This document shows positions 7,529 through 42,611 of a DNA stretch of 49,890 nucleotides, one piece after another. Under the pieces are notes generated by a model. The model was not told the DNA's origin. It searched no databases and worked only from the letters and a program-made list of their open reading frames with translations. Source of the DNA: Chitinophaga pinensis (GTDB taxonomy: Bacteria > Bacteroidota > Bacteroidia > NS11-12g > UBA955); assembly GCA_945877575.1 (NCBI GenBank), contig CAMDUE010000006.1, positions 96,767-146,656 on the forward strand, written 5' to 3'. Position numbers and translations under genes: made by a program. Each line of letters begins with the position of its first letter. Within the stretch, counting starts at the first letter, position 1.

Positions 7529-8170
7529 TTAGTTGAAAAACGGATTGGTATTTATTTCTTTCTGAACTTGAGTGGATGGACCATGTCCACAAAAAAGCTG
7601 CATATCTGATGGAAGGGTAAAGATTTCAGATCTAATTTTCTCTAGGAGCAAATCGTGATTTCCGCCGGGAAGATCGGTTCTTCCTATAGAACCTTGAAAA
7701 ACGCAATCGCCTACCACCGCAAAATTTTCATCTTCCTGAATGTAAATTACATGTCCAGGTGAATGACCGGGAACAAATCTAACATCCAATTTCAAGGTTC
7801 CCACGATGATGCTATCGCCGTGTTGAACAAATTGATCTGGAAGGGGAGAAGGGGTGTAATCAAGGTTCCAAACGGCTGCCATTGCGTCTGACCGTTGAAT
7901 CATTTTGACATCGTCTTGGTGCAGATAGTATGGAACTTCCGGAAACTCTTGTTTAACGTACCAATTGCCAAAAATATGATCAATGTGGGCGTGGGTTCCC
8001 AATAAATGGGTCAAGGTAAGTTGATTTTGGATTAAAAAATCTTTGACGGTGTTGCATTCCTCACGATTATACATTCCTGCGTCTATCAGCGCTGCATGGC
8101 GGGTATTTTCATCCCAAATAATGTAGGTGTTTTCTGATAGCGGATTAAAAGTGAATGACTGAATGGGCAT
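7529..8170 (-). CDS. MBL-fold metallo-hydrolase, glyoxalase II-like
   Basis: 213 residues from the ATG at 8168-8170. The zinc motif THAHIDH (HxHxDH) is near residue 78, the second His in VPGHSPGH, the bridging Asp in AVVGDCVF, and the last His in LFCGHGP, the full ligand set of the family. GSIGRTDLPGG is typical of the glyoxalase II-like hydrolases of unknown substrate. A longer upstream start would prefix a hydrophobic Cys-rich stretch that overlaps the promoter, so it is rejected. TATCTTTG lies four bases before the chosen ATG. Confidence 0.88.
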   Translation of the reverse strand: MPIQSFTFNPLSENTYIIWDENTRHAALIDAGMYNREECNTVKDFLIQNQLTLTHLLGTHAHIDHIFGNWYVKQEFPEVPYYLHQDDVKMIQRSDAMAAVWNLDYTPSPLPDQFVQHGDSIIVGTLKLDVRFVPGHSPGHVIYIQEDENFAVVGDCVFQGSIGRTDLPGGNHDLLLEKIRSEIFTLPSDMQLFCGHGPSTQVQKEINTNPFFN

Positions 8171-8174
8171 GGCG

Positions 8175-8182
8175 CAAAGATA
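8175..8182 (-). promoter_or_regulatory. -7 promoter element of the MBL hydrolase-menD unit
   Basis: Minus strand TATCTTTG-CGCC-ATG. A TTG 22 bases upstream lies in the right arm of the lpd terminator. The four-base gap to the ATG suggests a leaderless transcript. Confidence 0.5.
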
Positions 8183-8197
8183 GGTCTGTAAACAACA

Positions 8198-8227
8198 AAA
8201 AACCCAAAGCATACGCCTTGGGTTTTT
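8198..8227 (-). terminator. Intrinsic terminator of lpd
   Basis: AAAAACCCAA (8198-8207) and TTGGGTTTTT (8218-8227) form a 10-bp stem with a 10-base loop. The T run follows on the minus strand, 22 bases after the lpd stop. The A run on the other arm means it could also work on the plus strand. Confidence 0.8.
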
Positions 8228-8249
8228 CTATCTTGTTTAAGGATTTAAA

Positions 8250-9638
8250 TTATAAATGTATGCACTCGTCGTAAGCTTGAGCAACGGCTTCCATTACTGC
8301 TTCGCTCATTGTTGGGTGAGGATGTACTGATTTCAATACTTCCATACCGGTGGTTTCCAAATTACGAGCTACAACAGCTTCAGCAATCATATCGGTCACA
8401 CCTTCGCCCATCATGTGACAACCCAACCATTCGCCGTATTTTTTGTCAAAAATAACTTTAACGAATCCGTCTTTATGTCCGCTAGCGCTTGCTTTTCCGC
8501 TCGCACTGAATGGGAATTTACCCACGCGAATCTCGTAGCCTTTTTCTTTTGCTTGAGCTTCGGTCAATCCAACAGAAGCAACCTCCGGGTGAGTGTAGGT
8601 ACAACCAGGGATGTTTCCGTAGTTCAAAGGCTGAGGATGATGTCCGCAGATAGCCTCTACGCAAATGATTCCTTCAGCAGAAGCAACGTGTGCCAATGCA
8701 GGACCAGGAACGATATCACCGATGGCGTAAACGCCAGGAACAGTAGTTTTGTAGAATTCATCTACTACCACTTTACCTCTTTCGGTTTTAACGCCCATTT
8801 CTTCCAAGCCTAAGTTTTCAAGGTTGGTTTCAACACCTGCAGCACTCAAAACGATATCGCATTCGCGTGTTTCAACACCTTTAGCAGTTTTGATGCTCAC
8901 GGTGCAACGGTCGCCTTTAACTTCTACTTTTTCAACGCTAGATTCTGTTAAAATTTCGATGCCTTTTTTCTTGTACGACATAGCCATAGCTTTGCTCACT
9001 TCCTCATCTTCCACGGGAAGAATGCGGTTCATGAACTCAACGATGGTCACTTTGGTTCCAACGGTATTGTAGAAATAAGCGAATTCCATTCCAATAGCAC
9101 CGCTACCAATGATCAACATTTCTTTGGGTTGCTTAGGAAGAACCATTGCCTCACGGTATCCAATGACGTGTTTGCCATCGATAGGAATGTTTGGCAATTG
9201 ACGACTTCTAGAACCGGTAGCTAAAATGGTGTGATCTACTTCAACGGTATTTACTTTACCATCTTCACCTGTAACGGCAATTTTGCCTTTACCCGCTAAT
9301 TTGGCAGTTCCTTTAATGACTTCAATTTTATTTTTCTTCATCAAGAAGGCAATACCCTTGCTCATTCCGTCAGCTACTCCGCGGCTTCTTTTGATCATGC
9401 CATCGAAGTCGGTTTTAACTTCTGCTACAGAAATTCCGTAGTCAGCAGCATGGTTAATGTAGTCAAACACTTGAGCACTTTTTAACAAGGCTTTAGTGGG
9501 TATACATCCCCAATTCAAACACACACCACCTAAATCGGCTTTTTCGATGATGGCAACTTTTTTACCCAATTGTGAAGCGCGGATGGCAGCAACGTAACCG
9601 CCGGGTCCACTACCTATGACAGCAATATCAAATTTCAT
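8250..9638 (-). CDS. lpd: Dihydrolipoyl dehydrogenase
   Basis: 462 residues, normal length. The FAD-binding GSGPGGYVAA is at residues 9-18, and the redox-active disulfide is in GGVCLNWGCIPTK with Cys40 and Cys45. The NAD-binding GSGAIGMEFAYF lies near residue 180. The C-terminal HPHPTMSEAVMEA carries the catalytic His and the downstream Glu. This E3 flavoprotein reoxidises lipoamide in the 2-oxoacid dehydrogenase and glycine cleavage complexes. No E1 or E2 genes are nearby. It ends in a strong terminator and has its own -7 element in the short gap after typA. Confidence 0.96.
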   Translation of the reverse strand: MKFDIAVIGSGPGGYVAAIRASQLGKKVAIIEKADLGGVCLNWGCIPTKALLKSAQVFDYINHAADYGISVAEVKTDFDGMIKRSRGVADGMSKGIAFLMKKNKIEVIKGTAKLAGKGKIAVTGEDGKVNTVEVDHTILATGSRSRQLPNIPIDGKHVIGYREAMVLPKQPKEMLIIGSGAIGMEFAYFYNTVGTKVTIVEFMNRILPVEDEEVSKAMAMSYKKKGIEILTESSVEKVEVKGDRCTVSIKTAKGVETRECDIVLSAAGVETNLENLGLEEMGVKTERGKVVVDEFYKTTVPGVYAIGDIVPGPALAHVASAEGIICVEAICGHHPQPLNYGNIPGCTYTHPEVASVGLTEAQAKEKGYEIRVGKFPFSASGKASASGHKDGFVKVIFDKKYGEWLGCHMMGEGVTDMIAEAVVARNLETTGMEVLKSVHPHPTMSEAVMEAVAQAYDECIHL

Positions 9639-9657
9639 GGTCTGATCTTTTGTGATG

Positions 9658-9665
9658 CGAAGATA
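9658..9665 (-). promoter_or_regulatory. -7 promoter element of lpd
   Basis: TATCTTCG on the minus strand, 19 bases before the lpd ATG, in the 33-base gap between typA and lpd. Confidence 0.4.
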
Positions 9666-9671
9666 ATATAA

Positions 9672-11486
9672 TTAACTCATGGTTTCTAACTTATTGGATG
9701 CGCGCTTACGCTCGTTTTCATCCAATATAATCTTTCTCAAACGGATGTTTTCTGGAGTTACCTCAACGTATTCATCGCCTTGGATGTATTCCATTGCTTC
9801 TTCCAAAGAAAACACTTTTGGTGGCGCCAAAACGGTGCTATCATCTTTACCTGCAGCACGGAAGTTGGTCAACTGCTTTGCAGTACAAAGGTTCAATACC
9901 AAATCTCCTGGCTTGATGTGCTCACCCACAATTTGTCCGGCATAAATTTCTGAACTCGTAGGAATGAAATAATTTCCTCTGTCTTTCAATTTATCCATAG
10001 AATACCCGGTTGAGCTTCCTTTTTCTTTGGATATCAATACACCATTGATACGGCCAGGGATTTCACCTTTGTAGGCTTCGTATGCTTTGAAACGGTGAGC
10101 CATGATGGCTTCTCCTTGGGTTGCAGTCAATAAGTTGTTTCTCAAACCAATCAATCCGCGAGAAGGAACCTCAAATTCCAATCTAACCATGTCGCCTTTG
10201 GGCTCCATGCTGAGCATTTCACCTTTTCTTTGGGACACATATTCAATAACTTTTCCAGAGTGCGAATCAGGTACGTCAACCGTTAAAATCTCAATTGGTT
10301 CGCATCTTACGCCATCAATTTCTTTTAATATGACGCGGGGCTGACCCAACTGGAGTTCGTAACCTTCACGACGCATGGTTTCCACCAATACGCCCAAGTG
10401 CAGAATTCCACGTCCAAAAACCAAAAACTGATCAGCAGAATTGGTTTCCTGAACACGAAGAGCCAAGTTTTTCTCGGTTTCTTTCATCAAACGCTCGCGA
10501 ATCTTCTGTGAAGTCACGTGCTTACCCTCTTTTCCGAAGAAAGGAGAGTTGTTGATGGCGAACAACATACTCATGGTAGGTTCGTCAATCTTCATTTGTG
10601 GCAATGCCTCTGGATTTTCAATGTCGCAAATGCAATCGCCAATCTCAAAGTTTTCCAAACCCGTTACAGCACAAATATCACCAGCGGTAACCTCAGTTAT
10701 TTTGGCTTTACCCAATCCGGTAAAAGTATAAATCTCTTTGATTTTATGTTTTTCGATACGTCCATCGCGCTTCACCAAAGAAACGGGCATATTTTCTTTC
10801 AAATGTCCGCGCTTCAATCTTCCAATGGCAATACGACCGGTAAAGCTAGAATAATCTAAGCTGGTGATTTGCATTTGGTTGGTACCTTCTTCCACGTGGG
10901 GCTCAGGAATCACCTTCACGATGGTATCCATCAAGAAGGTCAAATCTGGGGTAGGATTTCTAAAATCTGGACCGAACCAACCGTTTTTACCCGATCCGAA
11001 AACCGTAGTAAAATCAAGTTGTTGTTCGTTTGCACCTAGGTTAAAGAACAAATCAAAGATATCGTCGTGGGTTTTTTCAGGATCACAGTTTGGTTTGTCA
11101 ACCTTATTAATAACAACAATAGGTTTCTTACCGAGTGCAAGAGCTTTTTGAAGCACGAAACGGGTTTGGGGCATGGGTCCTTCGAAAGCATCCACAAGAA
11201 GCAATACTCCATCGGCCATATTCAAAACACGCTCTACTTCACCGCCAAAATCGGCGTGACCAGGGGTATCAATGATGTTAATTTTTGTACCTTTCCAAAT
11301 TACGCTAACATTTTTGGCAAGGATGGTAATACCGCGTTCACGTTCAAGGTCATTATTGTCAAGAATAAGTTCGCCAAAGTCTTGATTTTCTCTAAAAAGT
11401 TTGGCTTGGTGGAGCATTTTGTCGACCAGGGTAGTTTTCCCGTGGTCAACGTGGGCGATGATTGCAATGTTGCGCAGTTGAGACAT
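9672..11486 (-). CDS. typA: Translational GTPase TypA/BipA
   Basis: 604 residues. The G1 loop [10 protein letters not shown] is at residues 11-20, ERGITI is the switch I/G2 region, DTPGHADF is G3 and NKVDKP is G4. The C-terminal region with SRGLIGLRN and [16 protein letters not shown] is specific to TypA/BipA among translational GTPases. The protein binds the 70S ribosome and helps 50S subunit assembly, notably under stress or cold. lpd follows 33 bases downstream on the same strand. Confidence 0.96.
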
Positions 11487-11553: not shown

Positions 11554-11672
11554 GGGAGTCGGGGGTCGGGAGTCGGGAGACGGGAGTCGGGGGACGGGGG
11601 ACGGGAGACGGGGGACGGGGGACGGGTTTCGGGTTTCGGGGGACAGGTTTCGGGGGGCGGGAGTTGGGGAGG
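11554..11672. repeat. Degenerate heptad tandem array 1 (17 units)
   Basis: Seventeen consecutive 7-bp units without phase slip: mostly GGGAGTC, GGGGGAC, GGGAGAC, with GGGTTTC near the end. GGG recurs every 7 bp in thirteen units in a row (11554 to 11638). The array lies 67 bases upstream of the typA start and next to gene fragments, and on the minus strand it stays open as a spurious proline/serine-rich frame. Confidence 0.9.
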
Positions 11673-11689
11673 AGGGACGGGAAGTTTGA

Positions 11690-14314: not shown

Positions 14315-15895
14315 ATGTTCGAATCTGAGATTTCCAAACGCAAAACCTTCGCTATTATTTCGCATCCCGATGCCGGTAAAACTACCCTGACAGAGAAATT
14401 TCTGCTTTTTGGTGGACAAATTCAAACCGCAGGGGCTGTTAAGTCCAACAAAATCACAAAAACCGCCGCCTCAGATTTCATGGAAATTGAAAAACAAAGG
14501 GGTATTTCTGTGGCTACATCGGTGATGACTTTCCCCTACAAAGGAAAGTGGGTCAATATTTTGGATACTCCCGGGCACAAAGATTTTGCTGAAGATACTT
14601 ACCGAACTTTGACCGCAGTTGACTCCGTTATCTTGGTGGTAGATTGCGTGAAAGGGGTGGAAGAGCAGACCAAACGACTCATGGAAGTTTGCAGAATGCG
14701 CAAAACTCCTGTGATTGTGTTTATCAATAAAATGGATCGCGACGGTAAAGATCCCTTTGATTTACTCGATGAGCTCGAAGAAAATTTAGACATTCAAGTG
14801 CATCCTTTGAGCTGGCCCATCAACGGCGGACGCGATTTTAAAGGTGTTTATTTGCTTCCCTCGAAATCTTTGAACCTCTTCGAAAGCTCCAAAACCAAAC
14901 TCTCTGATGATGTAATATCAGTGCAAGGCGTTGATGATGAAAGACTTCCACAGTTGGTTGGGGATAAAAATGCTGCAAAACTCCGCGAAGACGTGGAACT
15001 CATTGAAGGTGTTTACGGAGACATCGATATCAATAATTATTTGAAAGCCGACGTGGCACCCGTTTTCTTCGGTTCGGCATTGAACAACTTCGGAATTCAG
15101 GAGCTCCTAGATACCTTCGTGGATATCGCTCCGAATCCGCTCGCACGTCCCACAACCGTAAGGGATGTGGAGCCCACCGAAGCTAAATTTTCGGGATTTA
15201 TTTTCAAGATACACGCCAATTTAGACCCTCGCCACCGCGATAGAATTGCCTTCTTGCGTGTGTGCAGCGGCAAATTTGAACGCAATAAAGCTTACAAGCA
15301 TACCCGACTTGAAAAACAGGTCAAATTTGCGGCGCCATACACCTTTTTAGCTGATTCTAAGGAAGTGATGGATGCTGCTTTTCCGGGGGATGTTGTGGGC
15401 TTATACGATACCGGAAACTTCAAAATTGGCGATACACTGACCGAAGGTGAGGTATTCACTTTCAAAGGAATCCCGTCGTTTTCGCCCGAAATATTCAAAG
15501 AATTAATCAATCTTGACCCAATGAAAAGCAAGCAGTTGGAAAAAGGCATCCAACAGCTCACCGACGAAGGATTGGCCAACTTGTTCATCCAAGAACCCGG
15601 AAGCCGAAAATTTGTTGGTACCGTGGGTGAACTGCAGTTTGAAGTACTGCAATACCGCCTAGAACACGAGTACGGCGCGAAATGTCGCTTCGAGGCCCGC
15701 GGAATCCACAAAGCCTGCTGGATGACCGGTCCTGAAGCCGATCTGAAAGATTTCATGAAATACCGCGGTTCAAACATTGCCTACGACAAATCGGGCAATC
15801 CCGTTTTCCTCGCCGAAACCGCTTACATATTGCGCATGGCCATGGAAAAATACCCAGACATTCAATTCCACACAACAACGGAGTTGATATCCTAA
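14315..15895 (+). CDS. prfC: Peptide chain release factor 3
   Basis: 526 residues, normal for RF3. The GTPase P loop [10 protein letters not shown] is at about residues 16-25, [10 protein letters not shown] is switch I, DTPGHKDF is G3 and NKMDRDG is G4. The RF3-specific C-terminal domain includes [20 protein letters not shown] and [16 protein letters not shown]3 uses GTP to recycle RF1/RF2 from the ribosome after peptide release. The stop codon at 15893-15895 is followed after two bases by heptad array 2. Confidence 0.96.
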
Positions 15896-15897
15896 GT

Positions 15898-16051
15898 AGT
15901 CCATAGTCCGTGGTCCATAGTCCGTAGTCTGAAGCCTGTGGTCCATAGTCGGAAGTCCATGGTCTGTAGTCCGTGGTCTGTAGTCCGTAGTCCATAGTCT
16001 GTGGTCGCCGACACCTGAAACCCGTTACCCGGTACCTGAGACCCGGTACTA
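15898..16051. repeat. Degenerate heptad tandem array 2 (22 units)
   Basis: Twenty-two 7-bp units with no phase slip. The first fifteen are AGTCCRT/GGTCYRT-type. The last part shifts to ACCC-containing units: GAAACCC, GTTACCC, GGTACCT, GAGACCC, GGTACTA. The array occupies essentially the entire gap between prfC and the convergent DUF3078 gene. Its last unit, GGTACTA, contains that gene's stop codon (TAG on the minus strand, 16049-16051). Confidence 0.93.
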
Positions 16052-17002
16052 TATATGAAACGCGTATCCAATGCCGAAAACCCATGAGTTTTGCCAAGCG
16101 TTGGTGCCGGGTTTGACCAGGTCTTTGTCGAAGATGGAGATTAAAGTGTAGTTTAAGTTGAGGTATTTAGTGAGACGGGCCGAAAGGCCAATGTCTATAC
16201 GAGAATCTAAAAGTGCGCGATCTGTTTGGTAGGGTAGAAAGCCCAAGTAGTTGAGCTTGGCGGTGTACATTTCTTTGGGACCAAAATTGCGCGTGCCACC
16301 CATTTGGACTTGCATACCGAATTCGTTGTCAATGTATTGTCCTTTTTGAACACGAGCAATGACCTCGGTGTTGCGGAGGTTGTACAAATCTTGATTGATG
16401 ACGTAGGTTTGTTTGAGGGTAACATAACCAAGACGAATGAAGGAGTTTCGGTAGAATTTATTTTCAGTACCTATGGCTAACTGTGTTTGTCCCTGCGATA
16501 GGAAACTGGTGGTCATGGTTGTAAGTTCTCTTCCGATGGGGTCTTTTGTGTAGATATAACCGGGTAGAAGTTGCGTTTGAAAATTGAGTCCACCGTACAT
16601 AGATAGGGTAGGGTATTCATCGAATTCCATACCCAATTTACTGTCTAAAAAGACGTTGTCAATGTTCTTTCTGGTGCTCCAAAAGCCATCTCCGAAAATG
16701 TCGCTCTGTCGGTTAGCAATGACACCCACGTTGATTTTGAGGGTATTATCCCAACTCATCCGCTCCTTTTTAAGATTGGCTCCGGCACTAATTAGACCAG
16801 CAAAGCTGATATTGTTGCTAGAGCCGCTGTTCCAATTGGGGGATGAGTTGGCTAATGAGAAGTTAAATTTAAAATCAGCACCGTATTCCCAAATACGGCT
16901 AGCTGTTGAGTCACGACGAAATTGGTTTCCGCTGTTGGTAGGGGTAGACGATGGAACGTCCCCCGAAAACAGAAATCCCAAAAATGCCGCGGCTAAATGC
17001 AT
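16049..17002 (-). CDS. DUF3078 outer-membrane protein
   Basis: 317 residues. A hydrophobic N-terminus (AAAFLGFLFSG) serves as signal peptide. The DUF3078 pattern is visible in NISFAGLISAGANLKKERMSWDNTLKINVG, read in two parts: a strand with a central Gly-rich turn and then W-D/N-N-x-L. Alternating amphipathic strands continue to the C-terminus, which ends in aromatic/hydrophobic FGIGYAFHI, a typical barrel end recognised by the BAM machinery. Function unknown. It lies 25 bases downstream of sucC on the same strand. The stop codon is part of repeat array 2. Confidence 0.75.
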   Translation of the reverse strand: MHLAAAFLGFLFSGDVPSSTPTNSGNQFRRDSTASRIWEYGADFKFNFSLANSSPNWNSGSSNNISFAGLISAGANLKKERMSWDNTLKINVGVIANRQSDIFGDGFWSTRKNIDNVFLDSKLGMEFDEYPTLSMYGGLNFQTQLLPGYIYTKDPIGRELTTMTTSFLSQGQTQLAIGTENKFYRNSFIRLGYVTLKQTYVINQDLYNLRNTEVIARVQKGQYIDNEFGMQVQMGGTRNFGPKEMYTAKLNYLGFLPYQTDRALLDSRIDIGLSARLTKYLNLNYTLISIFDKDLVKPGTNAWQNSWVFGIGYAFHI

Positions 17003-40200: not shown

Positions 40201-41325
40201 ATGCAAAGCGAAGTTTTGGATAATGTTGCCGTTGAGACGGATTTTCTTCCCTTAAACGGAACCGATCACATTGAATTTTTCGTAGGAAACGCCAAACAAA
40301 GCGCCTATTATTATCAGGCTGCTTGGGGATATAAATTGGTTGCTTACGCGGGGCCTGAAACGGGAGTGCGCGATAGAGCCAGTTATGTTTTAGAGCAAGA
40401 GAAAATTCGCTTGGTTTTAACTACAGCCATTGATCCAAACTCTGAAATCGCTCAACATCACCTTACCCACGGTGACGGTGTTAAGTTTTTGAGCATTTGG
40501 GTTGATGACGCCACCAAAAGTTTCGAAGAAACAGTTAAACGCGGTGCAAAGCCATACATGGAGCCCACTCGTTTTGAAGATGAGAATGGCTATGTGATTA
40601 TTTCTGGTATCCATACTTACGGTGAAACCGTACATAAGTTTGTTGAGCGTAAAAACTACAACGGCCCATTCTTGCCTGGTTATAAAAAGCCTGCTTTTGC
40701 CATGAATGTTAAACCCGTTGGACTTAGATACGTAGACCATTGCGTTGGAAATGTCGAATTAGGCAAGATGAATGAATGGGTTCGTTTTTACGAGGATGTA
40801 ATGGGCTTCAAATTGTTATTGACTTTTGATGACAAAGACATCAGCACCGAATACAGCGCTCTGATGAGTAAGGTGGTGTCTAACGGAAACGGATACATCA
40901 AATTCCCCATCAACGAGCCTGCTGAAGGAAAAAAGAAATCTCAAATAGAAGAGTATATCGAGTTCTATAAAGGTGCTGGTGTTCAACACATTGCCATCGA
41001 AGTACACAACATCATTGAAACGGTAGGAGAACTTCGCAATCGCGGAATTGAATTCCTATACGTTCCTGAAACCTACTATGATGACGTACTTGACCGAGTA
41101 GGAGAGATTGAAGAAAATCTTGAAGATCTAAAGAGTCAAAACATTCTTGTAGACCGAGACGAATCTGGATATCTACTACAAATCTTCACCAAACCTGTAG
41201 AAGATCGCCCCACCGTATTTTTTGAAATCATTCAAAGAAAGGGTGCAAAATCATTCGGAAAAGGCAATTTCAAAGCCCTTTTCGAAAGCATTGAACGCGA
41301 ACAGGCGGTAAGAGGGAATCTGTAG
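40201..41325 (+). CDS. hppD: 4-hydroxyphenylpyruvate dioxygenase
   Basis: 374 residues. The iron ligands are His180 (YVDHCVGNV), His263 (GVQHIAIEV) and Glu342 (FFEIIQRKG), all present. GTNxF-like loops are replaced by FGKGNFKALFESIEREQ at the C-terminus, the gating helix. The enzyme converts 4-hydroxyphenylpyruvate to homogentisate in tyrosine breakdown. Homogentisate dioxygenase is not adjacent. The stop at 41323-41325 is followed after three bases by heptad array 4. Confidence 0.95.
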   Translation: MQSEVLDNVAVETDFLPLNGTDHIEFFVGNAKQSAYYYQAAWGYKLVAYAGPETGVRDRASYVLEQEKIRLVLTTAIDPNSEIAQHHLTHGDGVKFLSIWVDDATKSFEETVKRGAKPYMEPTRFEDENGYVIISGIHTYGETVHKFVERKNYNGPFLPGYKKPAFAMNVKPVGLRYVDHCVGNVELGKMNEWVRFYEDVMGFKLLLTFDDKDISTEYSALMSKVVSNGNGYIKFPINEPAEGKKKSQIEEYIEFYKGAGVQHIAIEVHNIIETVGELRNRGIEFLYVPETYYDDVLDRVGEIEENLEDLKSQNILVDRDESGYLLQIFTKPVEDRPTVFFEIIQRKGAKSFGKGNFKALFESIEREQAVRGNL

Positions 41326-41328
41326 ATT

Positions 41329-41524
41329 GGTACTAGGTACTAGGTACCGGGTTACGGGTAGCGGGCTTCGGGTATCGGGTTTCGGGTTACGGGTAGCGGG
41401 TACCGGGTTACGGGTAGCGGGCTTCGGGTATCGGGTTTCGGGTTACGAGTAGCGGGTTTCGGGTAGCGGGCTTCAGACCACAGACCATGGGCCACGGACT
41501 ACAGACTACAGACTACAGACTATA
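41329..41524. repeat. Degenerate heptad tandem array 4 (28 units)
   Basis: Twenty-eight in-phase 7-bp units: GGTACTA, then GGTACCG/GGTTACG/GGTAGCG/GGCTTCG/GGTATCG/GGTTTCG, ending in GACCACA and GACTACA units. A higher-order unit of eight heptads (56 bp) is duplicated: 41343-41398 and 41399-41454 differ at one base. GGG occurs every 7 bp fourteen times in a row (41349 to 41442). The last unit GACTATA contains the stop codon of the convergent membrane protein gene. Confidence 0.95.
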
Positions 41525-42611
41525 TCAATATCGATTGTATAAATAGAATTCCTTGAGTAACTGAGAAGACAGCCATCACCGTCAAGGCTATCCAGCGTTG
41601 AAGGGGAGTTATGTGTCTGAATAGGTAAATCCAGGCTGGGAGAAGCACGCACACGTTCCGGTAAACGGCGGTGACACTGCTGCTACTGTAGGGGAGCCAC
41701 CAATAGAGAAGGGTGAAAATCATTAATAGGAGCCACAGCGGTTGTTGGGTGCGGATCTTGTAGAATTTAATGACGGCTAGAATTACAGCGATCCAAATGA
41801 AGTAGTTTTGGAGTTCTATTGACATTTTTAGGGTGCCCCATGCATCGATTAATTCCTTGAATTTCAAGTACATCATCTCGAATGGGAGCTTCACATGGTG
41901 TCCGTATTTGCCCTGTATTAGGAATAATGCGTTCCATTTTCCAGTGGCGAAATAATCGTATGTAAACCAAGTTATGATGCCGGCTAATGGAATTAATACG
42001 AGTTTAGAGGCATTGGTGAGGGTTAAATCTTTTTTGCGCCATTGATAAAATGCATAAACGCCCAAACAGGCGATGAGAATGAATCCGATAGAGTAGGAGA
42101 GTGCGGCAAAGTAACCCATGATGCCAGCCAGTAAGTATTTTTGACGTTCCAGAAAGTAAAACATCCCCAGAACGAAAAAAGCTAAAAGGGACATGGGGAA
42201 AATGGCGTGAAAATAGATATTTCCCGGTGCTAGTAATAAGAGTAAAGCGCCCGCAAAAGATTCATTTCTGACCCAATACAGGCTGCAAATCCAGAAGAAG
42301 GTACTGATGTAAATACCGGCATCGGCAAATGGAATTTGTTGGCCAGAAATTTCATGAAGCAGTCTAATGAGAGCAGGGTAAAGGGGTGCCCAGCCGGCGT
42401 TTCCGCAGTTCCCTGAGGGAATATCAGGGCAAGGGTAAAGGGTGTGCCCAACTTTAGCAATGCCAAGGTAAAGCCCGGAATCCCAACGGCTCCAACAGAT
42501 TTCGTTCCATCCTCCCCAACAATTTCCGGCTAAAGCTATGTAATGTCCAAATAAAAAATAGGAAACAATGAGCGCGAATGCGGCAATGATTTGTCTTTTG
42601 CTTAGTTCCAT
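41520..42611 (-). CDS. PIG-V-like mannosyltransferase (GT-C membrane protein)
   Basis: 363 residues with about eleven hydrophobic segments. The first extracytoplasmic loop carries SRWDSGLYLGIAKVG (Asp44), then GWAPLYPALIRLL, the pair of motifs seen in bacterial PIG-V-like GT-C transferases (R-W-D-x-x-W/L-Y and F-P-L-Y-P). These use polyprenyl-phosphate mannose to mannosylate a lipid or glycan outside the membrane. Acceptor unknown. The start overlaps the oligopeptidase 3' end by 10 bases, so the genes are coupled. The TAG stop lies in array 4. Confidence 0.75.
   Translation of the reverse strand: MELSKRQIIAAFALIVSYFLFGHYIALAGNCWGGWNEICWSRWDSGLYLGIAKVGHTLYPCPDIPSGNCGNAGWAPLYPALIRLLHEISGQQIPFADAGIYISTFFWICSLYWVRNESFAGALLLLLAPGNIYFHAIFPMSLLAFFVLGMFYFLERQKYLLAGIMGYFAALSYSIGFILIACLGVYAFYQWRKKDLTLTNASKLVLIPLAGIITWFTYDYFATGKWNALFLIQGKYGHHVKLPFEMMYLKFKELIDAWGTLKMSIELQNYFIWIAVILAVIKFYKIRTQQPLWLLLMIFTLLYWWLPYSSSSVTAVYRNVCVLLPAWIYLFRHITPLQRWIALTVMAVFSVTQGILFIQSILI

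What the first reader, a model, noticed from the sequence alone, without database searches (positions are those of the whole stretch)
15898..16051. Strict 7-bp phase in a highly degenerate intergenic array (array 2)
Twenty-two heptads follow without a single insertion or deletion although the units differ at most positions. Ordinary microsatellites lose phase as they decay. Here substitutions are tolerated and length changes are only whole units. The array fills the gap between prfC and DUF3078 to within two bases. Together with the arrays at 11554, 18957 and 41329 it defines a dispersed family. Heptameric tandem repeats are known in heterocystous cyanobacteria (STRR); I know of no description for Bacteroidota.
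Basis: partly seen in the sequence, partly recalled or inferred. Interest (0 to 1): 0.75.

Follow-up and report, generated by a model that had tools for sequence, protein, structure and literature searches.

The report
Drifting seven-letter repeats between genes
The gap between two genes is filled by a strictly seven-base-paced but variable repeat, one of many such arrays in this bacterium; a sister species keeps the arrays at the same places but spells them with entirely different seven-letter words, so these arrays are rewritten rapidly in whole seven-base steps.

Summary
Window 15896-16051 is a degenerate 7-bp array (93 of 147 lag-7 matches; dinucleotide shuffles 37±5.7), filling the prfC/DUF3078 gap. 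It is one of many in the genome: 47 period-7 arrays in 571 kb sampled (partly chosen for hits), almost none at other periods, no phase slip found in 58 arrays of two species.

New here: (1) the nearest sister (MAG JAMNXP01, 83-88% DNA identity) has arrays at the same sites, six of seven compared, but with unrelated words. Whole-genome word counts are reciprocal (GGTGATC x3: 122 vs 0; RGTCYRN-type: 2 vs 187); 12 other congeners have neither. (2) Arrays are polar: NRGTNNN words run inward from both ends in 39 of 39 two-armed arrays, whatever the gene orientation. (3) The arms are not hairpins: in this species they pair less than arms taken from different arrays. (4) Two copies in a 2.25-kb duplication differ by two 7-bp indels plus substitutions only.

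Best reading: fast in-register satellite-like turnover, a new variant of a known kind. The cause of the polarity is open.

The parts
15896..16009 (+). Array 2, left block: about 16 heptads of TRGTCYR type (RGT words, reading away from prfC)
   Evidence: TRF 15896-15999 period 7; heptad listing; lag-7 test
16010..16051 (-). Array 2, right block: about 6 heptads of ACCYGNN type on +, i.e. TAGTACC/GGGTCTC/AGGTACC words reading inward from the DUF3078 end; the outermost TAG is the DUF3078 stop codon
   Evidence: TRF 16020-16049 period 7; listing; ORF 16049-17002 minus
14315..15895 (+). prfC (peptide chain release factor 3), left convergent neighbour
   Evidence: PF16658 RF3_C 8e-41, PF00009; ORF
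16049..17002 (-). DUF3078 protein gene, right convergent neighbour
   Evidence: PF11276 1.9e-16; ORF
11554..11680 (+). Array 1, one-armed G-rich heptads (GGGGACG/GGGAGTC/GGGTTTC) upstream of typA/bipA
   Evidence: typA by PF21018
18956..19072 (.). Array 3: AGACTAG/GGACTAG heptads then GGTACCA heptads, between convergent ABC-transporter ATPase and a minus-strand gene
   Evidence: sister array of other words at the same site L227:10466-10717
41329..41526 (.). Array 4: GGTACTA/GGGTNNC heptads (with a 56-bp, eight-unit duplication) then RGACYAC heptads; two-armed, between convergent genes
   Evidence: sister array of other words at the same site L237:8068-8215

Best explanation
A satellite-like family of degenerate heptanucleotide arrays has settled at gene borders, mostly just behind stop codons, in the lineage of this species and its sister. 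Shown: arrays keep a 7-bp register; they gain and lose whole 7-bp units while substitutions accumulate; sites are shared while the words differ completely between the sisters; the NRGTNNN word strand runs inward, away from the flanking genes, at both ends; arms of one array avoid complementarity in this species. Inferred: turnover is by slipped-strand mispairing or unequal recombination inside each array, which can only move in 7-bp steps, so phase survives while the spelling drifts; arrays with complementary arms are lost as unstable palindromes; gene borders are where such growth is tolerated. No cellular function is needed or shown. The polarity suggests that growth is directional, 3'-ward away from the gene, but its cause is not known.
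For: Strict period 7 and no slips. Duplicated array copies in L094 differ by two 7-bp indels and substitutions only; a 56-bp unit duplication in window array 4. Six of seven compared sites hold arrays in both sisters with unrelated words; reciprocal whole-genome word counts. Polarity 28:0 and 11:0 in every gene context. Arms avoid pairing in G000, p=0.0002. Convergent-gene enrichment p=3e-4 and 6e-5.
Against: Slippage alone predicts neither the polarity nor a shared species vocabulary across unlinked loci, and no multi-word tract is shared between loci that would show copying. Loss of complementary arms is not separable from assembly failure at palindromes. Independent filling of favoured sites in the two sisters is not excluded.
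Confidence: 0.6

Rival explanations
1. Directional 3'-end extension: breaks near gene borders leave two 3' ends, each extended inward with RGT words (telomere-fusion-like, or by copying other arrays after Chi-like processing by an AddAB/RecBCD-type enzyme), then joined.
For: Absolute polarity at both ends independent of gene direction; arms use different words; same polarity in Anabaena azotica, a cyanobacterial MAG and a distant Bacteroidetes MAG.
Against: Register is kept across the switch (offset 0/1 in 21 of 28 G000 arrays), whereas free joining would randomise it; no PF00078 reverse transcriptase in G000, no Ku in the genus sample; no shared multi-word tracts that would show copying. AddAB/RecBCD was not searched for.
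Confidence: 0.15
2. Bidirectional transcription terminators or cruciform hairpins built from inverted heptad arms.
For: Enrichment between convergent genes and right after stop codons; the array-free relative G006 has what looks like an intrinsic terminator at the site of window array 4.
Against: Inter-arm pairing is weaker than in chimeras of arms from different arrays in G000 (-12.8 vs -23.9 kcal/mol, p=0.0002; G011 same direction, p=0.19); no terminator-like site by consensus in 15700-16300; the polarity also holds between divergent genes.
Confidence: 0.1
3. Protein- or RNA-binding arrays (one protein per heptad, as proposed for cold-shock proteins in PMC4679880), maintained by selection.
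For: Common NRGTNNN core in both species and both arms (phase set on RGT).
Against: Words are replaced completely between sisters; the orientation relative to transcripts differs between convergent, tandem and divergent sites.
Confidence: 0.08
4. Mobile MITE-like element inserted at many sites.
For: Dispersed, site-sharing, absent from 12 congeners by word search.
Against: Arrays differ in words and length at every locus; no multi-word tract is shared between loci apart from the segmental duplication.
Confidence: 0.05
5. Assembly artefact.
For: Some contig ends lie in arrays.
Against: A separately assembled sister MAG has arrays at the same sites; similar arrays occur in isolates such as Pedobacter, Mucilaginibacter and Anabaena azotica.
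Confidence: 0.02

Closest known systems
GGGAATC / GGGGA(C/T)T heptamer repeats of Xanthomonas and Nostoc (Rehm et al. 2015, PMC4692102)
   Same: Dispersed heptamer arrays; in Xanthomonas 70-75 convergent inverted pairs; in all three organisms repeats lie close to or over stop codons on the coding strand, and upstream of genes on the non-coding strand, i.e. the same polarity; 83% at the same place in a sister species with length and sequence variation.
   Different: One G-quadruplex-forming word family there; here a large vocabulary, much of it not G4-forming (TAGTCCA, TAGTCTG), and words wholly different between sisters.
TAACTGA heptamer direct repeats in Beggiatoaceae, Cyanobacteria and five Bacteroidetes (MacGregor 2015, PMC4679880)
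   Same: Intergenic heptamer arrays in Bacteroidetes, some long and mixed with other heptamers, with shorter repeat-free intergenic regions in close relatives.
   Different: A fixed word, mostly upstream of start codons; TAACTGA is not among the common words here.
STRR of heterocystous cyanobacteria and degenerate heptanucleotide repeats of the Nostoc tRNA-Leu intron P6b (PMC3488679)
   Same: Degenerate heptads with unit copy-number change; Anabaena azotica arrays examined here show the same GT-to-AC polarity, 6:0.
   Different: P6b arms base-pair into a hairpin; arms here avoid pairing in G000. P6b also shows indels off the heptad motif.
DRT10 / telomerase-like tandem-repeat synthesis (PMC12632851)
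   Same: Makes short tandem repeats by 3'-end synthesis.
   Different: 9-nt uniform repeats from an RNA template in the example read; no PF00078 reverse transcriptase found in G000.

Membership tests
Degenerate heptanucleotide tandem arrays (SSR / STRR-like) | Tandem 7-bp unit, strict register | tested here: met
Degenerate heptanucleotide tandem arrays (SSR / STRR-like) | Dispersed, mostly intergenic | tested here: met
   gene calls are simple ORF calls; a few arrays were scored inside ORFs
Degenerate heptanucleotide tandem arrays (SSR / STRR-like) | Length change in whole units | tested here: met
   two 7-bp indels, no other indel, in one duplicated array pair; only one such pair was available
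Rehm-type polar heptamers | Word strand runs away from the nearest gene / convergent pairs | tested here: met
   compared with the text read
Rehm-type polar heptamers | G-quadruplex-forming word GGGNATC | tested here: not met
   mixed vocabulary; TAGTC and TGGTC words prominent, GGG words only a part
TAACTGA repeats | The word TAACTGA | tested here: not met
   not among the commonest word classes of either species
Hairpin heptanucleotide repeats (Nostoc P6b) | Arms base-pair | tested here: not met
   arms pair less than chimeras in G000; inconclusive in G011 (n=11)
Telomerase/DRT-like product | Cognate reverse transcriptase in the genome | tested here: not met
   no PF00078 match in G000 (99.9% complete); divergent enzymes could be missed

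The most novel reading that the evidence does not exclude
Bacterial heptad arrays are written by a strand-autonomous, directional process that extends 3' ends inward from gene borders with a species-specific vocabulary, so that sister species keep the same sites but use different heptad words, and the polarity (RGT words in, ACY words out) is shared at least by Bacteroidota and Cyanobacteria.
Probability: 0.2. Interest if true: 0.8.

Novelty: new variant of a known kind. Interest (0 to 1): 0.52.

Why it matters
Heptamers are cited as the commonest repeat class in most bacterial genomes, and the reason for seven is unsettled. A pair of sister species with arrays at the same sites, complete word replacement, strict register and an absolute polarity makes the question testable: strains of this group should show the growth point, the step size and the direction of change. 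Polarity in words that cannot form G-quadruplexes, and arms that avoid pairing, argue against G4 and hairpin explanations of the similar Xanthomonas pattern.

Tried and rejected
Snap-back copying of one arm to make the other: rejected for G000, where arms of one array share fewer words than arms of different arrays. An earlier version of that test mixed one-armed and two-armed arrays, which is a confound, and was redone on two-armed arrays only. Hairpin/terminator function. Stop-codon supply as the cause of polarity: TAG is enriched at array edges in G000 (25/45 vs 70/453) but not significantly in G011, and many words hold no stop codon. Reverse transcriptase or Ku-based origin. Long-tract gene conversion. 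A special status of TRGTCYR words across phyla: the scan found at least 119 stretches in many phyla, but it selects on that pattern, and the reversed control pattern is also frequent in some Bacteroidota, so no claim is made. Other Bacteroidota sampled (G219, G200, G392, G445, G310) have period-7 arrays but too few two-armed ones to test polarity.

Full report
Observation. Window 15896-16051 is a degenerate heptad array between prfC (RF3_C) and a convergent DUF3078 gene (PF11276). Lag-7 identity is 93/147 against 37±5.7 in dinucleotide shuffles (maximum 58 of 2000), with equal peaks at 14 and 21 and none elsewhere. It has two blocks: about 16 TRGTCYR heptads and about 6 ACCYGNN heptads. The prfC stop ends at 15895 and the outermost right heptad contains the DUF3078 stop codon, so the gap is filled to within two bases.

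Genome-wide. Period 7 is the only abundant short period: 47 arrays in 571 kb of G000 and 27 in 256 kb of the sister G011; other periods from 4 to 13 give 0-2 each. Many G000 stretches were chosen because a word search had hit them, so its density is an upper estimate. Median array length is 177 bp in G000 and 192 bp in G011. In arrays, 94.6% and 94.2% of tetramer recurrences are at multiples of 7, and no phase slip was detected in 11.5 kb of array. The congener G006 has no comparable arrays in 140 kb (one AT-rich hit).

Same sites, other words. G011 is a separately assembled MAG; its 69541-base contig matches JAMNXP010000011 (L180). In the compared syntenic DNA six sites carry arrays in both species and one in G011 only, and in the printed pairs the words are unrelated. 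At prfC/DUF3078 G000 has a 160-bp array of TAGTCC words and G011 a 324-bp array of CTTTGGT and GCTGACC words between the same flanks. In G006 (about 75% identity in prfC) the two genes run end to end. Whole-genome word searches agree: RGTCYRN x4 gives 187 hits in G000, 2 in G011 and 0 in 12 congeners; GGTGATC x3 gives 0 in G000, 122 in G011 and 0 in 12 congeners. Either arrays arose in the common lineage of G000 and G011 and their words were then replaced, or both lineages filled the same favoured sites independently; the first seems likelier.

Whole-unit change. A 2.25-kb segment in L094 is duplicated at 92.5% identity and includes an array. The two array copies differ by two 7-bp indels and by substitutions that move the boundary between word blocks; no other indel occurs in the array. 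Window array 4 contains a 56-bp, eight-unit duplication.

Polarity. In two-armed arrays the left arm is made of NRGTNNN words and the right arm of their reverse-complement type (NNNACYN): 28:0 in G000, 11:0 in G011 (binomial p=4e-12). Both arms read inward have a similar logo, though the phase in that logo was set on RGT. The rule holds between convergent (16), tandem (14) and divergent (4) genes, so it is not set by transcription direction. It also holds in arrays of Anabaena azotica (6:0), a cyanobacterial MAG (3:0) and a distant Bacteroidetes MAG (3:0). Among pattern hits from many phyla it is 15:3, or 14:3 after removing L180, which is G011 itself; some of these are the same cyanobacterial and Bacteroidetes loci just named. 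Opposite cases are from Deltaproteobacteria, Anaerolineae and Verrucomicrobia and a Clostridiaceae MAG. The register of the GT or AC dinucleotide is kept across the switch (offset 0 or 1) in 21 of 28 G000 arrays.

Not a hairpin. Among 28 two-armed G000 arrays, pairing energy between the arms is -12.8 kcal/mol against -23.9 for arms combined from different arrays (p=0.0002), and shared 8-mers are 0.7% against 4.9%. G011 goes the same way without significance (n=11). Loss of perfect palindromes, in the cell or in assembly, could explain this; some contig ends lie in arrays.

Position. Arrays are enriched between convergent genes in both species and many start within about 20 bp of a stop codon. 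In G000 the stop codon at an array edge is TAG in 25 of 45 cases against 70 of 453 overall, apparently because the outer word TAGTCC or TAGTACC supplies it. At the site of array 4, G006 carries what looks like an ordinary intrinsic terminator in a 49-bp gap.

Mechanism. Slippage or unequal exchange inside arrays with a 7-bp unit explains phase, whole-unit change and rapid rewriting. It does not explain polarity or the species-wide vocabulary. No multi-word tract is shared between loci, so long-tract conversion is not the homogeniser. There is no PF00078 reverse transcriptase in G000 and no Ku in the genus sample. Directional 3'-end extension is attractive for the polarity, but the kept register speaks against free joining and no enzyme is named.

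Prior work. Rehm et al. 2015 (PMC4692102) describe, for GGGAATC in Xanthomonas, convergent inverted pairs, proximity to and overlap with stop codons on the coding strand, and shared sites with length and sequence variation between two species. MacGregor 2015 (PMC4679880) describes heptamers in Bacteroidetes. The Nostoc tRNA-Leu intron P6b stem is made of degenerate, pairing heptanucleotides (PMC3488679). The present arrays are therefore a new variant: many words, no G4 requirement, full word replacement between sisters, non-pairing arms.

Noticed in passing
L249:4675-4857 (G011:C2): A G011 array whose right arm is CCCTAAA x7, the same heptad as the plant-type telomere repeat, in a site that has no array in G000.
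   Followed up: no
L094:5000-7235 and 8080-10305 (G000:C5): A 2.25-kb tandem-like duplication (92.5% identity) that carries an array in each copy; used here as a natural test of array change.
   Followed up: yes
L261:1987-2036 (G006:C8), orthologous to window 41324-41521: In the array-free relative the convergent gap holds a terminator-like hairpin GGGATAAG-GAAA-CTTATCCC followed by a T-rich run; the array stands in its place in G000 and G011.
   Followed up: no
L227:13618-13942 and L237:8005-8244 (G011): G011 arrays hold, between the heptad arms, pieces of another repeat (AGCTTCGCTGAGACTTTGAG and its reverse complement), perhaps a separate palindromic element nested in the arrays.
   Followed up: no
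L293:2476-2568 (Clostridiaceae BRH_c20a); L129, L143, L197: Heptad arrays with the opposite polarity (ACY words first), in Clostridiaceae, Deltaproteobacteria, Anaerolineae and Verrucomicrobia.
   Followed up: partly
L256:6904-6990 (G000:C3) and L251:5901-5993 (G011:C2): A heptad array at the same site in both species that may extend into a coding region; words differ there too. The reading frame was not checked.
   Followed up: no
G011:C11:326-886: The only PF00078 reverse transcriptase found in the genus sample lies in G011, not in the window's genome.
   Followed up: no
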